Assembly (NCBI GenBank): GCA_903935175.1
Contig: CAIZQQ010000223.1
Location: forward strand, 1-63,486
Source: an uncultured Micrococcales bacterium
GTDB lineage: Bacteria > Actinomycetota > Actinomycetes > Actinomycetales > Microbacteriaceae
DNA: 63,486 nucleotides
Direction: 5' to 3'
Below the pieces are notes generated by a model. It saw only the letters and a list, made by a program, of their open reading frames with translations. It was not told the origin of the DNA and did not search any database. Positions within the stretch are counted from its first letter, which is position 1. The number at the start of each line of letters is the position of its first letter. The position numbers and the translations under genes were made by a program. Below are positions 17,787-54,610 of this stretch, one piece after another.

Positions 17787-17923
17787 CTAATTTGTGATAA
17801 TTCGAGCCGATTTTGCTACGAAATCATTACTAGGATGCTTGTAGCCGAGGTTTCTATTAGGCTAAAACCACCGATTTCGTTTGAGTGCGAATGGTCGGTA
17901 ACAACTCAAAGAGGAGTAATCGC

Positions 17924-19360
17924 ATGTCGGTTCAAGAACTTAAAAACTTTGTCAATGGTGAGAAGGTTTCGGCTTCATCTGGTGAAACCCTCGACATCAT
18001 CGACCCGTCAACCGGTGAGGTCTACGCAACCTCACCAAAATCAAACGCGGCAGACATCGACGCGGCCTACAAGGTAGCCGACAAGGCCTTTGATGTTTGG
18101 GGCAACATGACCCCTAAAGACCGTCAGCTCGCACTCTTTCGCATCGCCGACGCACTGGAGGCTCGCGCCGAAGAAATGGCCGATGTCGAAAGCCAGAACA
18201 CCGGAAAGCCTCGCCCGACGCTCGTCGAGTATGAAGTTCTGGTCTCGGTTGACCAGATCCGCTTCTTTGCCGGTGCCGCCCGCAACCTAGAGGGCCGTGC
18301 CACCGCCGAATACTCAACCTCACACACTTCTTCGATTCGCCGTGAACCAATCGGCGTGATCGGTCAGGTCACCCCTTGGAACTACCCGTTGAACATGGCC
18401 ACCTGGAAGTTTGCTCCTGCCTTGGCAGCCGGTAACACCATCGTGCTCAAGCCGTCTGACACCACCCCGGCTTCGACCCTGCTGCTTGCCGAGATCGCTC
18501 AGGAGTTCTTGCCTAAGGGCGTGTTCAACGTTGTGACGGGTGACCGCGACACCGGCCGTGCGCTGGTCGAACATCCGACCCCACAAATGGTTGCCATCAC
18601 CGGTTCAGTTCGTGCCGGTATGGAAGTTGCCAAGAGTGCCGCTTCTGACCTCAAGCGCGTTCACCTAGAGCTAGGTGGCAAGGCTCCGGTAATCATCTTC
18701 GCCGACGCCGACCTAGACCGCGCAGCCGAAACCCTAGTGGTCGCCGGATTCTTCAACGCCGGTCAAGACTGCACCGCAGCAACCAGAATTTTGGTTCACC
18801 GCGATGTTCACGACGAGTTCGTGGCCAAGTTGGTTGCCAAGGTCAAGACGGATGCTCTAACCGGCGCACCGCACCGTGACGACATTCTCTTCGGCCCGGT
18901 TAACAACGCCGGCCAGCTCGACCGAGTCAAGGGCTTCATCGAGCGCTTGCCAGATCACGCGAGCATCGCGGTTGGCGGAAACGCCATCGCGGGTGCCGGT
19001 TACTTCCACGAGGCAACCGTACTCACCGGACTCAAGCAAAAAGACGAGCACATACAGAGCGAAATCTTTGGCCCTGTGGTCACCGTTCAGTCATTCAGCA
19101 CCGACGACGAGGCAATGACTTGGGCGAACGACGTCAACTACGGTCTTGCGTCTTCGGTCTGGACTTCGAACCACACCCGCGCCATGCGTTTTGCCAAGGG
19201 CCTCAACTTTGGTTGCGTGTGGATCAACGACCACATTCCACTGGTTGCCGAAATGCCACACGGTGGTTTCAAGCACTCGGGTTACGGAAAAGACCTTTCG
19301 ATGTATGGCTTCGAGGACTACACCCGCGTCAAGCACGTCATGCACTACATCGGCGACTAG
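17924..19360 (+). CDS. NAD-dependent aldehyde dehydrogenase, gamma-aminobutyraldehyde dehydrogenase type
   Basis: LELGGKAPVIIFADADLD, catalytic FFNAGQDCTAATR; ATG at 17924 after GAGGAG SD; polyamine gene context. Confidence 0.87.
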   Translation: MSVQELKNFVNGEKVSASSGETLDIIDPSTGEVYATSPKSNAADIDAAYKVADKAFDVWGNMTPKDRQLALFRIADALEARAEEMADVESQNTGKPRPTLVEYEVLVSVDQIRFFAGAARNLEGRATAEYSTSHTSSIRREPIGVIGQVTPWNYPLNMATWKFAPALAAGNTIVLKPSDTTPASTLLLAEIAQEFLPKGVFNVVTGDRDTGRALVEHPTPQMVAITGSVRAGMEVAKSAASDLKRVHLELGGKAPVIIFADADLDRAAETLVVAGFFNAGQDCTAATRILVHRDVHDEFVAKLVAKVKTDALTGAPHRDDILFGPVNNAGQLDRVKGFIERLPDHASIAVGGNAIAGAGYFHEATVLTGLKQKDEHIQSEIFGPVVTVQSFSTDDEAMTWANDVNYGLASSVWTSNHTRAMRFAKGLNFGCVWINDHIPLVAEMPHGGFKHSGYGKDLSMYGFEDYTRVKHVMHYIGD

Positions 19361-19382: not shown

Positions 19383-19419
19383 GAGGCTCCGGGCGTTGCT
19401 CGGGGCCTCAAACTTTTTT
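19383..19419 (+). terminator. Rho-independent terminator after the aldehyde dehydrogenase gene
   Basis: GAGGCTCCGGGCGTTGCTCGGGGCCTC hairpin then AAACTTTTTT; ends 1 nt before the next ATG. Confidence 0.88.
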
Positions 19420-19420
19420 C

Positions 19421-20425
19421 ATGGCCGCAATCTGGATGCTCCCCTCGCTTGTTCTTGGCCTCTACCTTGGTTTCTCGACAGGCATGTGGCAGCTCGCGCT
19501 GATGTCGTTTGGTTCGGCGCTAATTGCGGTGGTGGTGTCTAGGGTTCGTCGGCCTGGTTCCAGCGAAACCGCCACCGGTGGCAACTCTTTCACCAGCGTC
19601 GGCAAGAAAATCTTCTATCTCAATAAACCGTTGACTAGATGGCGATGGATGCTCTCGCCAAAGCTGCGCGCCTCGGCAAGGTCGCTTGTTGCCGAGAGCC
19701 AACGCGAGCAGAACCTGCAACTCGTGCTGCCTCGACTCTTGGGTCGAGGGTTTCGAGCATCCATGCCTGGCGAACTTTGCGCGGTGCTGGGCGAAGCGCA
19801 AGGTGCCGCGATCGAGGTAGATCTCACCACCGCCCCGCATGTGTTTGTGGTCGGGCCAACGGGTTCTGGCAAGAGTCAACTGTTGCGCATCCTCGCCAAG
19901 TCACTCACCAACCGCTATCTACCAACCGAACTACAACTCATGCTGGTCGATTTCAAAGGGGGAGGGTTGCTCGATGGTTTAGGTCTCGAGCCTTGGAAAG
20001 TGGCGAGTTTGTCTGATCTTGACGGTGACCGGTCGACTTTCTGGGTCGAGCTGCACGCCCTTTTGCAGCAGCGCGAGCGCGACCCAACGCTTTTGAAACC
20101 GAGGGTGGTCATCATCGTGGATGAACTTGCCGAAGTTTTGCGAGACCAAGCCGCCTGCGTTGCACTGACGTCGGTTGCTGCTCGTGGCCGGTCGCTTGGC
20201 GTGCATCTGGTGCTTGCCAACCAAGGCCTGTCGGGTGTGCCGAGGGATCTTCTGCTCAACCTTCGTTTGCGAATAGCACTCGCCGGAGTCGATCAGGTTG
20301 AGCTCGTTCAGTTGGGTGGCAAGGCATCGCCGCTAACGAGTGGGCAGCATCCGCTGATTGCGGCACGACTACTTCAGCACCAAGCGCCCGACCGCGATTT
20401 CAATTTTGCCGTTGGACTGGTTTGA
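19421..20425 (+). CDS. Orphan single-domain FtsK/SpoIIIE (EccC-like) membrane ATPase
   Basis: Two N-terminal TM helices; Walker A GPTGSGKS, LMLVDFKGGG, Walker B RVVIIVDELAEVL, ARGRSLGVHLVLANQ; no gamma domain. Confidence 0.85.
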   Translation: MAAIWMLPSLVLGLYLGFSTGMWQLALMSFGSALIAVVVSRVRRPGSSETATGGNSFTSVGKKIFYLNKPLTRWRWMLSPKLRASARSLVAESQREQNLQLVLPRLLGRGFRASMPGELCAVLGEAQGAAIEVDLTTAPHVFVVGPTGSGKSQLLRILAKSLTNRYLPTELQLMLVDFKGGGLLDGLGLEPWKVASLSDLDGDRSTFWVELHALLQQRERDPTLLKPRVVIIVDELAEVLRDQAACVALTSVAARGRSLGVHLVLANQGLSGVPRDLLLNLRLRIALAGVDQVELVQLGGKASPLTSGQHPLIAARLLQHQAPDRDFNFAVGLV

Positions 20426-20429
20426 AACC

Positions 20430-21545
20430 TTAGGCCAGCACGCTCTCTAGCGAAACGCTTGAGATTCCGTGAGCTGCACCAACAGGTTCGTTCACCAATA
20501 GGCCACCGTGGGTGTTTAGACCCAGTGCCAGAGCTGCGTCTGCTTGGCAGGCTGCGGACCATCCCTTGCCTGCCAGTGCCTTTGCGTAGGGCAAGGTGGC
20601 ATTGGTTAGGGCGTAGGTAGAGGTGTGAGGCACGGCACCAGGCATGTTTGCCACGCAATAGAACACGGTGTCATGAACCGTATAGGTCGGTTCAGCATGG
20701 GTGGTGGCGTGCGAGTCGGCGAAGCATCCGCCTTGATCGATAGCGATGTCAACCAAGACTGTGCCCGGGCGCATTGCCTTGACGTGGTCGTTGGTAACCA
20801 GCTTTGGTGCCTTCGCGCCAGGAATCAGAACTGAACCAATCACAAGGTCGGCGTCGGTCACCGCCCGCTCGATTTCAAACGTGTTGCTCACGATGGTGCG
20901 AAGACGACCGGCGTAGTGGTGGTCGAGTTCACGAAGTCTTGAAATGTTGGTGTCAAGAACCGTGACTTCGGCTCCTAGGCCAACGGCCATGGCGATTGCA
21001 TTGGTTCCGGCCACGCCGCCACCCAGCACAACGACCTTGGCTGGGCGGGTGCCTGGCACACCACCGAGTAGGGTTCCGTTGCCGCCGTTGTGGCGCATGA
21101 GGGTTTGAGCTCCGACCAGAACCGACAGTCGGCCAGCAACCTCACTCATCGGTGCGAGCAGTGGCAGTTGGCGGTTCGGCAGCTGAACGGTCTCGTAGGC
21201 GATGGCCGTCACTTGGTTCTTGATCAGTTGCTCGGTGAGCTCTAGATCAGCGGCTAGGTGCAGGTAGGTAAAGAGCACGAGCCCTGGTCGAAGGTACTGG
21301 TATTCGGATTCGATTGGCTCTTTGACCTTTAGAACCAAGTCTCCTGCTGCCCAAGTACTAGCGGCATCGGGGGTAATGGTTGCGCCTGCTTTGGCATACT
21401 CTTGGTCGCTGATCGAAGAGCCTTTACCAGCACCTGCCTGAACTGAAACCTGGTGCCCGGCAGTGGTGAGTTCGTGAACACCGGCGGGGGTTATGGCAAC
21501 TCTAAATTCGTTGTTCTTTATCTCGCTAGGTACTGATACCCGCAT
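20430..21545 (-). CDS. ald: Alanine dehydrogenase
   Basis: [34 protein letters not shown]-binding [37 protein letters not shown] before ATG 21545. Confidence 0.96.
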
Positions 21546-21561
21546 GATTCTCCTTTGGGCG

Positions 21562-21619
21562 ACTCCTTCGTCGCACACAAGTTACAGCCTAGCGTTTTTA
21601 TAAGTGGTCGCGAAGGAGT
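21562..21619. promoter_or_regulatory. Long-spaced 9-bp inverted repeat in the ald/pot divergent region
   Basis: ACTCCTTCG (21562-21570) and CGAAGGAGT (21611-21619) are perfect reverse complements. Confidence 0.4.
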
Positions 21620-51970: not shown

Positions 51971-54610
51971 ATGGCTACGCGTCGCCCTGCAACATCACGC
52001 GCGAGAAAATCTTCTTCGCGCCCAACTTCTCGCACCCAGCCAAAGGCACGTGCACCTCGAGCCCGCAAAGAATCCCCAAGCTCAGACTCACCGCTTTTGG
52101 TGCGCATTTACCGCTGGTTTGCTACCGGATTCGGCAACACGGTTCGCTACTTTGGTCGCCAAGACGAAATCGTTGATCAGCGCAGCGACAGCATCCCGTT
52201 TTCTTTTGTTCTTCTAGGCATCGTTGGAGCGGTGTTTGCCTGGTTCCTAACCCCTGATAACCCCGCCTACCTTGCTCACACTTGGACTTTTGGGCTTCTC
52301 TTCGGTCAAGTAGCCTCGGCTCTGCCGGTGGTCTTTATTGTTTTTGCTGTCTACCTGATGCGTCACCCTTCGGGCCAAAAAGACAACAGCCGCATCGGCC
52401 TCGGGCTACTTTTGCTTCTGGTCTCGATTTCTGGCTTCTTTCACTGGGCAGGCGGCACTCCAGCTCCATCAGATGCGGGCTTTGAGAAAACCCTTTCGGC
52501 AGCCGGCGGCGTTTTCGGTTGGCTAATTTCGGTGCCGTTTGTGCCACTGACCATCTGGGGCGCAATTCCGGCTCTGGTTTTGGTCACCTTGGGTTCGCTT
52601 CTAATCATGACCAAAACCGCACCAAACCGAATCGCTGCCCGACTTCGCGAACTTGGTGAAGCCCTATTTGGTGAACCAACCGAGAAGCCAGAGCGAATAG
52701 TTGAAGACGACGACGTACTCGATGCCTTCGACGGAACCAAGGTGCCATGGTGGCGCAGAGACAAGACCAAAGACCCTGCCTTTGACACACCGGTGGTCGA
52801 CACCACTTCTGCCGAAGAGCGTGAGCAAGCACTAGAAGACCTTTTCGAAGACCAGAACCAAGACATCGAGTCGGTCGATTCAGAAGATTTCGACCTCACC
52901 GAACCGGTCGAGATTGTGACGCCGTCGGCATTGGTCGACCCAGATCCAGCGAGCGAAGAGCCAGCGGCCGCAACTCCGGCAGCCAGACCAGCTCGGGTTT
53001 ACAAAATGCCTCCGCTGAACATCCTCGCGCCAGGCACGCCGCCAAAAGCTAAGAGTGCCGCTAACGACCAAATCGTTGCCGCCATCACCTCGGTTTTCAA
53101 AGAATTCAGCGTGGATGCCACGGTGGTCGGTTTCTCGCGTGGGCCAACAGTCACCCGCTACGAGGTTGAACTCGCTCCAGGCGTAAAAGTTGAGGCGGTT
53201 ACCCGTCTGGCCAGCAACATTTCTTACGCTGTCGCCAGCAACGAAGTGCGCATCCTTGCGCCGATTCCTGGCAAGTCGCTCATCGGCATCGAGATTCCGA
53301 ACACCGACCGCGAGATTGTTTCACTCGGTGACGTGCTGCGTTCGCAAGTTGCAACCCAGAGCCAGCATCCGCTCACCATCGGCATCGGTAAAGATGTCGA
53401 AGGTGGCTACGTGGTGGCAAACCTAGCCAAGATGCCTCACCTTTTGGTAGCTGGTGCAACCGGTGCGGGTAAGTCTTCGTTCGTCAACGCGATGATTACC
53501 TCGATTTTGATGCGCGCCAAGCCCGCCGAGGTTCGTCTCGTGCTGATCGACCCTAAGCGCGTCGAGCTTGCCGCCTACCAAGGTGTGCCGCACCTCATCA
53601 CGCCAATCATTACCAACGCCAAGAAGGCCGCCGAGGCACTTCAATGGGTGGTCAAAGAGATGGATGCTCGCTATGACGACCTCGCCTCGTTCGGGTTCAA
53701 GCACGTAGACGACTTCAACCGCGCAATCGTGGCTGGCACTTTGACCGCAAAAGAGGGCACCAACCGCGTCATGCAGCCTTACCCTTACCTTCTGGTCGTC
53801 GTTGACGAGCTAGCCGACCTTATGATCGTGGCCCCACGCGATGTCGAAGATTCAATCGTTCGCATCACCCAGTTGGCTCGAGCCGCGGGTATTCACCTGG
53901 TGCTGGCCACCCAGCGCCCTTCGGTGGACGTCGTCACCGGTTTGATCAAAGCCAACGTTCCGAGCCGCCTGGCCTTCTCGGTTTCTTCGGTCACCGACTC
54001 TCGAGTGATTCTCGACCAGCCCGGTGCCGAGAAGCTCATCGGTCAAGGTGACGCACTGTTTTCTCCGATGGGCACCAACAAGCCGATGCGTGTTCAGGGT
54101 GCCTGGCTCGCCGAAGACGAATTGCACAAGATTGTCGATCACGTCAAAGCTCAAATGTCACCTGAATACCGCGCGGATGTGGCAGAGGTTCACATTCAAA
54201 AAGTGGTTGATGCCGACATCGGTGACGATCTCGAACTTTTGCTTCAGGCTTGCGAACTAATCGTCTCGTCACAGTTTGGTTCTACCTCGATGCTGCAGCG
54301 AAAGTTGCGCGTTGGGTTCGCCAAAGCCGGTCGCCTGATGGACCTCCTCGAGTCGCGCAACATAGTTGGCCCTTCTGAGGGCTCAAAGGCGCGTGACGTC
54401 TTGGTCAAGCTAGAAGACCTACCAACCGTTCTAGCCTCGCTGCGCGGTGAGCCAGGAGCCGTGTCATCGCAGCCCGTGCAGGCCGCTGCCACGGTTGCCG
54501 ATGCACCGGTGAGCAACCTCGCCGCAGGAGATTTTGACGATTTCATTCCGAGTGGCACCGATGACGACGAAGGTGACGAAGACGCCTGGCAACTAACAGG
54601 GCGCAACTAG
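51971..54610 (+). CDS. ftsK: DNA translocase FtsK
   Basis: Four N-terminal TM segments, [55 protein letters not shown]-terminal gamma domain. Confidence 0.98.

What the first reader, a model, noticed from the sequence alone, without database searches (positions are those of the whole stretch)
19383..20425. Orphan single-domain FtsK/EccC-like membrane ATPase within polyamine catabolism genes
The 334-aa protein has two TM helices then one complete FtsK/SpoIIIE-type ATPase core (GPTGSGKS, LMLVDFKGGG, RVVIIVDELAEVL, HLVLANQ). It lacks the translocase gamma domain, FHA domains and multiple ATPase modules. The canonical 879-aa FtsK is at 51971-54610, so this is not the chromosome translocase. No WXG100, EccB/D/E or mycosin-like gene is adjacent. 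It could be a minimal type VII-like secretion motor, a DNA or peptide pump, or a reduced remnant of a larger protein. This is the best candidate in the window for uncharacterised function.
Basis: partly seen in the sequence, partly recalled or inferred. Interest (0 to 1): 0.6.

Follow-up and report, generated by a model that had tools for sequence, protein, structure and literature searches.

The report
Pared-down type VII secretion motor
This gene encodes a stripped-down, apparently working version of the motor protein (EccC) of type VII secretion, kept in nearly all sampled species of a tiny freshwater bacterium genus together with a single matching secreted-type protein encoded elsewhere in the genome, so it may show how little of this secretion machine is needed.

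Summary
The ORF is real: 19421-20425 (+), 334 aa. The reported start, 19383, is the stem of the upstream gene's terminator. It is not an FtsK paralogue. Sequence and fold match EccC/EssC best, and it retains two TM helices and one intact ATPase domain. The window belongs to a Rhodoluna MAG (Microbacteriaceae); 32 of 35 other genus genomes have a single-copy homologue, with intact motifs and dN/dS about 0.12-0.14. It is not an orphan. The genome has one WXG100 gene on another contig (RR-HK-WXG100, convergent with groEL), as do 54 of 60 genus genomes, and all 22 family loci examined keep WxG and a C-terminal YxxxE. Synteny (alanine dehydrogenase, polyamine genes) and the tree indicate it is the reduced orthologue of a ~900-1100-aa EccC found across Microbacteriaceae; intermediates of 525-860 aa exist. 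YukD/EccD-like and EccB genes were not found in the genus, and there is no separate EccCb. Best reading: the motor of a pared-down WXG100 export system, reduced to the one ATPase domain that was indispensable in mycobacterial EccC5. Secretion itself, and whether other membrane subunits exist, is untested. The polyamine genes are conserved neighbours, not evident partners.

The parts
19421..20425 (+). 334-aa single-domain EccC-like membrane ATPase gene
   Evidence: ORF; Pfam FtsK_SpoIIIE 8e-18; NCBIfam EssC 1.1e-22, EccCa 1.4e-21, FtsK 1.3e-6, all below equivalog cut-offs; PDB best hit T. curvata EccC 9.2e-34; dN/dS 0.12-0.14
19424..19480 (+). transmembrane helix 1 (residues 2-20)
   Evidence: AF2 helix 2-20; hydropathy 1-19; residues 1-40 have no nonsynonymous difference from L003 or L032
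19487..19549 (+). transmembrane helix 2 (residues 23-43)
   Evidence: AF2 helix 23-43; hydropathy 21-40
19778..20410 (+). single ATPase domain, D1/NBD1-like (about residues 120-330)
   Evidence: AF2 RecA-like fold, pLDDT about 69-95 by block; Foldseek best match EccC 4nh0, E 2.2e-13
19853..19876 (+). Walker A GPTGSGKS
   Evidence: G145, T147, G148, G150, K151 invariant in 31 genus homologues
19949..19966 (+). DFKGGG motif (EccC-type)
   Evidence: D177, K179, G180 invariant
20120..20125 (+). Walker B Asp-Glu (D234 E235)
   Evidence: invariant in 31/31 and in 29/29 family D1 domains
19383..19418 (+). intrinsic terminator of the upstream aldehyde dehydrogenase gene (stem 19383-19409 plus T-run), not part of the ATPase ORF
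   Evidence: sequence
17885..19360 (+). aldehyde dehydrogenase; conserved syntenic neighbour, not an evident functional partner
   Evidence: PF00171 2.3e-160; synteny
20430..21578 (-). alanine dehydrogenase; conserved syntenic neighbour, tail to tail with the ATPase gene
   Evidence: PF01262/PF05222; next to the long EccC in L092, L111, L115, L122-L125, L127

Best explanation
The gene is the Rhodoluna orthologue of the ~900-1100-aa EccC-type membrane ATPase common in Microbacteriaceae. It has been shortened to the TM hairpin, a short linker and ATPase domain 1. It most likely energises export of the genome's single WXG100 protein across the membrane: the ATPase assembles as an oligomer around its TM hairpins, hydrolyses ATP through D1 and pushes out a homodimeric WXG100 substrate carrying a C-terminal YxxxE motif. 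Shown by computation: orthology, intact catalytic motifs, purifying selection, presence beside WXG100 in most genus genomes, and absence of detected YukD/EccD-like, EccB and EccCb genes. Inferred: oligomerisation, physical pairing with the WXG100 protein, and secretion. Unknown: how the YxxxE motif is read without the D3 domain that binds the signal peptide in T. curvata EccC, and whether an unrecognised membrane partner exists.
For: EccC/EssC rather than FtsK by profile and structure. Single copy in 32 of 35 other genus genomes (two of the other three are 67-70% complete and the third is in 250 contigs). Catalytic residues invariant in 31/31; dN/dS 0.117 and 0.138, TM hairpin unchanged at the protein level. 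Same locus as the ~1000-aa EccC in other genera, whereas the ~1500-aa EccC lies elsewhere. The L010-type 526-aa homologues keep a D2 remnant alignable to the long form's D2 (E 1e-7). WXG100 gene in own genome (59.5 bits), in 54/60 genus genomes, at a conserved RR-HK-WXG100/groEL locus with WxG and YxxxE in 22/22 loci. Among 179 good family genomes, EccC is missing in 5, WXG100 in 5 and both in 3 (hand count; Fisher p = 1e-4). In M. marinum EccC5 the NBD1 Walker mutant is not viable while NBD2/NBD3 mutants are tolerated with defects (PMC4418733), consistent with D1 being what survives.
Against: The two genes are never adjacent. No secretion, binding or expression data. The known substrate-binding domain (D3) and the DUF/stalk region that contacts EccD are missing. 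The ATPase diverges fast (29-47% identity to most genus homologues, versus about 70-92% for neighbouring enzymes), which could mean relaxed constraint outside the core. The co-absence test has few events, ignores phylogeny, and two WXG100-negative genomes (G132, G201) keep a 1460-1472-aa EccC while two EccC-negative genomes (G147, G243) keep WXG100.
Confidence: 0.72

Rival explanations
1. It is the motor of a larger type VII-like complex whose other membrane subunits are too diverged or unknown to be recognised; the ATPase is short but the system is not minimal. (This is a narrower question inside the best explanation, so the confidences overlap.)
For: All characterised T7SSs need several membrane proteins (EccBCDE in T7SSa, PMC8131196; EssA, EssB, EssC, EsaA in S. 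aureus, PMC4949537 abstract). Only YukD and EccB were searched genome-wide.
Against: No YukD/EccD-like or EccB gene in 60 genus genomes; the EccB model rings in 42 of 148 class genomes, so it works. YukD is found in only 33 of 200 family genomes although EccC and WXG100 are near-universal. No candidate subunit is linked to either locus.
Confidence: 0.4
2. It moves DNA (chromosome, conjugation or uptake coupling ATPase) and the WXG100 protein is unrelated to it.
For: Shared FtsK/HerA fold; the FtsK motor and TcpA coupling protein are among the top structural matches.
Against: Profile scores prefer EssC/EccC by about 15 orders of magnitude over FtsK; no gamma domain; a complete FtsK is present; orthology by synteny to long EccC proteins; no conjugation genes recognised nearby.
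Confidence: 0.08
3. It is a decaying remnant of EccC without function.
For: Length and second-domain content vary widely inside the genus (about 315-560 aa); fast divergence.
Against: Catalytic residues invariant in 31/31, no internal stops in the listed matches, dN/dS 0.12-0.14, unchanged TM hairpin, genus-wide single copy.
Confidence: 0.04
4. The ATPase is active but serves the neighbouring polyamine or alanine genes, for example as a transport or regulatory accessory.
For: Conserved position beside aldH, alaDH and potABCD in Rhodoluna.
Against: In genera g34 and g102 it sits away from aldH, between an aminotransferase or lrp gene and ogt; in L101 and L113 the pot genes are not detected nearby; a terminator separates it from aldH; complete ABC transporter genes are already present.
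Confidence: 0.05

Closest known systems
EccC of type VIIa secretion (Thermomonospora curvata EccC 4nh0; mycobacterial EccC5 and the EccCa1/EccCb1 split form)
   Same: N-terminal TM pair plus D1/NBD1-type ATPase with Walker A, DFKGG and Walker B DE; best sequence and fold matches; paired in the genome with a WXG100 protein
   Different: One ATPase domain instead of three plus the DUF; no EccCb gene; no EccB or YukD/EccD-like genes found; WXG100 is monocistronic and unlinked, whereas a 2014 survey found actinobacterial WXG100 genes always in CFP-10/ESAT-6 pairs (PMC3935865)
EssC/YukB of type VIIb secretion (Firmicutes)
   Same: Membrane FtsK/SpoIIIE ATPase with WXG100 substrate; single WXG100 gene as in sagEsxA-like monocistronic proteins
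   Different: No FHA domains, no D2/D3, no YukD; EssA/EssB/EsaA equivalents not searched
Microbacteriaceae ~900-1100-aa EccC-like protein (e.g. L092, 990 aa)
   Same: Orthologue by position and tree; same WXG100/groEL partner locus in the family
   Different: The long form keeps a ~300-aa stalk region, D2 and a C-terminal domain, all missing here
FtsK/SpoIIIE DNA translocase and TcpA coupling protein
   Same: ATPase fold
   Different: Weaker profile match (FtsK 1.3e-6); no gamma domain; separate FtsK present in the window

Membership tests
EccC/EssC ATPase family (type VII secretion motor) | N-terminal pair of TM helices followed by an FtsK/SpoIIIE-type ATPase domain 1 with EccC-type motifs | tested here: met
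EccC/EssC ATPase family (type VII secretion motor) | Two or three tandem ATPase domains (D1-D3), or D1 plus a separate EccCb | tested here: not met
   One P-loop; FtsK is the only other strong PF01580 protein in the genome; further hits are weak P-loops below cut-off. The full-length EccC/EssC equivalog models are not reached
EccC/EssC ATPase family (type VII secretion motor) | Orthology to a full-length EccC | tested here: met
   Synteny and intermediates and tree neighbours
Type VII secretion system | At least one WXG100 substrate with WxG turn and C-terminal YxxxD/E | tested here: met
Type VII secretion system | EccC and WXG100 genes in one cluster | tested here: not met
   447 kb vs 1057 kb in complete genome G006, 384 vs 1016 kb in G017
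Type VIIa secretion system | EccB | tested here: not met
   PF05108 0/60 in genus; the same model rings in 42/148 class genomes
Type VIIa/VIIb secretion system | EccD / YukD ubiquitin-like component | tested here: not met
   PF08817 0/60 in genus; rings in 33/200 family genomes
Type VIIa/VIIb secretion system | EccE, MycP, EssA, EssB, EsaA | not tested
Type VII secretion system | ATPase-dependent export of the WXG100 protein | not testable with these tools
   needs a mutant and secretome assay
FtsK/SpoIIIE DNA translocase | C-terminal gamma (winged-helix) domain | tested here: not met
   No residues beyond the ATPase core

The most novel reading that the evidence does not exclude
One single-domain EccC and one homodimeric WXG100 protein form a complete two-gene export machine without EccB, EccD, EccE or D2/D3, with the TM hairpins of the ATPase oligomer themselves forming the channel and D1 reading the export motif. 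Streamlined Microbacteriaceae reached it by shortening EccC in at least two lineages.
Probability: 0.3. Interest if true: 0.78.

Novelty: new variant of a known kind. Interest (0 to 1): 0.52.

Why it matters
It is unsettled which parts of the very large type VII machines are the core exporter and which are regulators or envelope adaptors. Rhodoluna offers a natural deletion series: ~1000 aa in other genera, 525-860 aa intermediates, then ~320-aa motors that keep only the TM pair and the one ATPase domain whose mutation is not tolerated in mycobacterial EccC5, while the substrate and its YxxxE motif stay conserved. It also runs against the published statement that the streamlined relative Pontimonas has no type VII systems (PMC6106888): a genome of exactly the published size (G111) carries both genes. 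If export is confirmed, it gives a small system in non-pathogenic aquatic bacteria for structural and reconstitution work.

Tried and rejected
FtsK paralogue or DNA pump: rejected on profile scores, absent gamma domain and orthology to long EccC. Decaying pseudogene: rejected on dN/dS, invariant motifs and genus-wide single copy. Function with the polyamine genes: rejected as unsupported, because neighbourhoods rearrange while the gene stays. True orphan: rejected once a WXG100 gene was found. Many repeated losses of domain 2 inside Rhodoluna, suggested by a first tree, could not be upheld: a single clade of Rhodoluna single-domain proteins is not rejected (p-AU 0.317); at least two losses (Rhodoluna single-domain lineage and g34/g102) remain likely because the 525-aa Rhodoluna clade keeps D2. 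A first co-absence count at E 1e-12 (Fisher p 7e-4) was redone with a family profile, since many 'absent' genomes had a diverged EccC (p 1e-4). Weak genome-contig hits in Clostridia, WWE3 and Desulfomonile (25-41% identity) were not pursued. One literature search had an illegal term; a search for Microbacteriaceae with WXG100 found no paper.

Full report
The gene. The ORF runs from 19421 to 20425 on the + strand, 334 aa with an ATG start. The protein has two hydrophobic helices (predicted at residues 2-20 and 23-43), a short linker and one RecA-like ATPase domain; AlphaFold2 gives mean pLDDT 82.6, with ten-residue block means of about 69-95 in the ATPase part.

What family it belongs to. Pfam places it in FtsK_SpoIIIE (8e-18). 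Among finer models, EssC (1.1e-22) and EccCa (1.4e-21) score far above FtsK (1.3e-6), though all lie under the equivalog cut-offs, as expected for a single-domain protein. The best solved relative is Thermomonospora curvata EccC by sequence (9e-34) and by fold (Foldseek 2.2e-13, ahead of the FtsK motor and TcpA). The catalytic residues K151, D234 and E235 and the D-x-K-G motif are invariant in 31 genus homologues.

Where it occurs. The window lies in a 1.5-Mb MAG of 228 contigs; the nearest named relative, 88% identical, is a Rhodoluna record. 32 of 35 other same-genus genomes searched carry a single-copy homologue (one, G023, is split into two hits in one frame); the three without are 67%, 85% (250 contigs) and 70% complete. 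Against the two closest relatives dN/dS is 0.117 and 0.138, and residues 1-40 show no nonsynonymous change. Decay is therefore rejected.

Not an orphan. The genome encodes one WXG100 protein (G000:C37:5426-5680, Pfam 59.5 bits against a cut-off of 27.3). 54 of 60 genus genomes have exactly one. The gene sits downstream of a response regulator and histidine kinase and convergent with groEL, and this arrangement holds across the family loci fetched (one, L134, lacks a detected RR-HK pair); all 22 listed proteins keep WxG and a C-terminal YxxxE. In complete genomes the ATPase and WXG100 genes are about 0.6 Mb apart. In 200 Microbacteriaceae genomes WXG100 is present in 192 and an EccC-type relative in 176 at a strict cut-off, more with a family profile. 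Counting by hand over 179 good genomes, EccC is missing in G096, G147, G230, G233 and G243, WXG100 in G096, G132, G201, G230 and G233, both in three (Fisher p = 1e-4). G233 has one weak 62-bit match that I did not count as EccC. The events are few and phylogeny was not corrected for, so this is supporting evidence only.

Origin by reduction. In other genera the EccC-type gene at the same place, beside alanine dehydrogenase, potABCD and often aldH or dxr, encodes about 900-1100 aa with TM helices, a ~300-aa stalk region, D1, D2 and a C-terminal domain; a separate ~1500-aa FHA-bearing EccC in some genomes lies elsewhere. Intermediates exist: 810-860 aa (L101, L102), 712 (L095), 647 (L094), and six Rhodoluna homologues of 523-527 aa whose C-terminal part aligns with the D2 of L092 (E 1e-7) but lacks the usual Walker B stretch. 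The short proteins of Rhodoluna, g34 and g102 group together. I first read the tree as many independent losses of D2; a test did not reject a single Rhodoluna single-domain clade (p-AU 0.317), so I claim only that at least two losses are likely.

What is missing. YukD (PF08817) is absent in 60/60 genus genomes and present in 33/200 of the family. EccB is absent in 60/60; the model rings in 42/148 genomes of the class, so the absence is meaningful. No EccCb-like second protein is present. EccE, MycP, EssA, EssB and EsaA could not be searched.

How it most likely works. ESX systems have been described as defined by an FtsK/SpoIIIE ATPase plus WXG100 substrates (PMC4010439, abstract). In M. marinum EccC5, the NBD1 Walker A mutant gave no viable exchange and abolished secretion, while NBD2 and NBD3 mutants were tolerated with defects (PMC4418733). 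In ESX-5 the DUF domain next to the membrane contacts EccD (PMC8131196); here both the DUF-sized region and YukD/EccD-like genes are missing. The reduced protein keeps the TM pair and D1, the part that cannot be spared. I infer that it assembles through the TM hairpins, hydrolyses ATP and exports the WXG100 dimer. How YxxxE is read without D3, the domain that (from established knowledge of EccC; structure 4n1a holds ATPases 2 and 3 with a signal peptide) binds the signal peptide in T. curvata EccC, is open. None of this is shown by experiment.

Novelty. The parts are known; a single-domain EccC paired with one unlinked monocistronic WXG100 in an actinobacterium is, as far as the searched open literature shows, undescribed. 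A 2014 survey held that actinobacterial WXG100 genes always come in pairs (PMC3935865), and the Pontimonas genome paper states that this streamlined relative has no type VII systems (PMC6106888), while a genome of identical size here (G111, 1,760,810 bp) carries both genes. I rate it a new variant of a known kind.

Noticed in passing
G000:C37 (L078:5399-7927) and L103-L109, L130-L144: The single WXG100 gene lies immediately downstream of a response regulator-histidine kinase pair and convergent with groEL, an arrangement conserved across Microbacteriaceae; regulation or co-transcription by this two-component system is possible.
   Followed up: partly
L127 (G111:C1:1375000-1388000): A genome of exactly the published Pontimonas salivibrio size (1,760,810 bp) has an EccC-type gene (1026-aa frame) near alanine dehydrogenase and one WXG100 gene, although its genome paper states it has no type VII systems.
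   Followed up: partly
window 19383-19421: The terminator T-run ends 2 nt before the ATPase ATG with no clear Shine-Dalgarno sequence, and the frame across it is conserved in the closest relatives; the message may be leaderless or arise by read-through.
   Followed up: no
G096 (0.9-Mb complete genome, genus g36): The smallest complete family genome sampled lacks both the EccC-type ATPase and WXG100, a candidate end point of reduction.
   Followed up: partly
G038:C1:375063-375698 and G055:C16:77925-78557: Another family of the same order (f4) has EccC-like frames of only 645-661 aa, perhaps a separate case of shortening.
   Followed up: no
G162 and G224 (genus g102), G094, G175, G236 (genus g34): Other small-genome genera also carry 334-363-aa single-domain EccC-type frames, with a single WXG100 gene in each genome.
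   Followed up: partly
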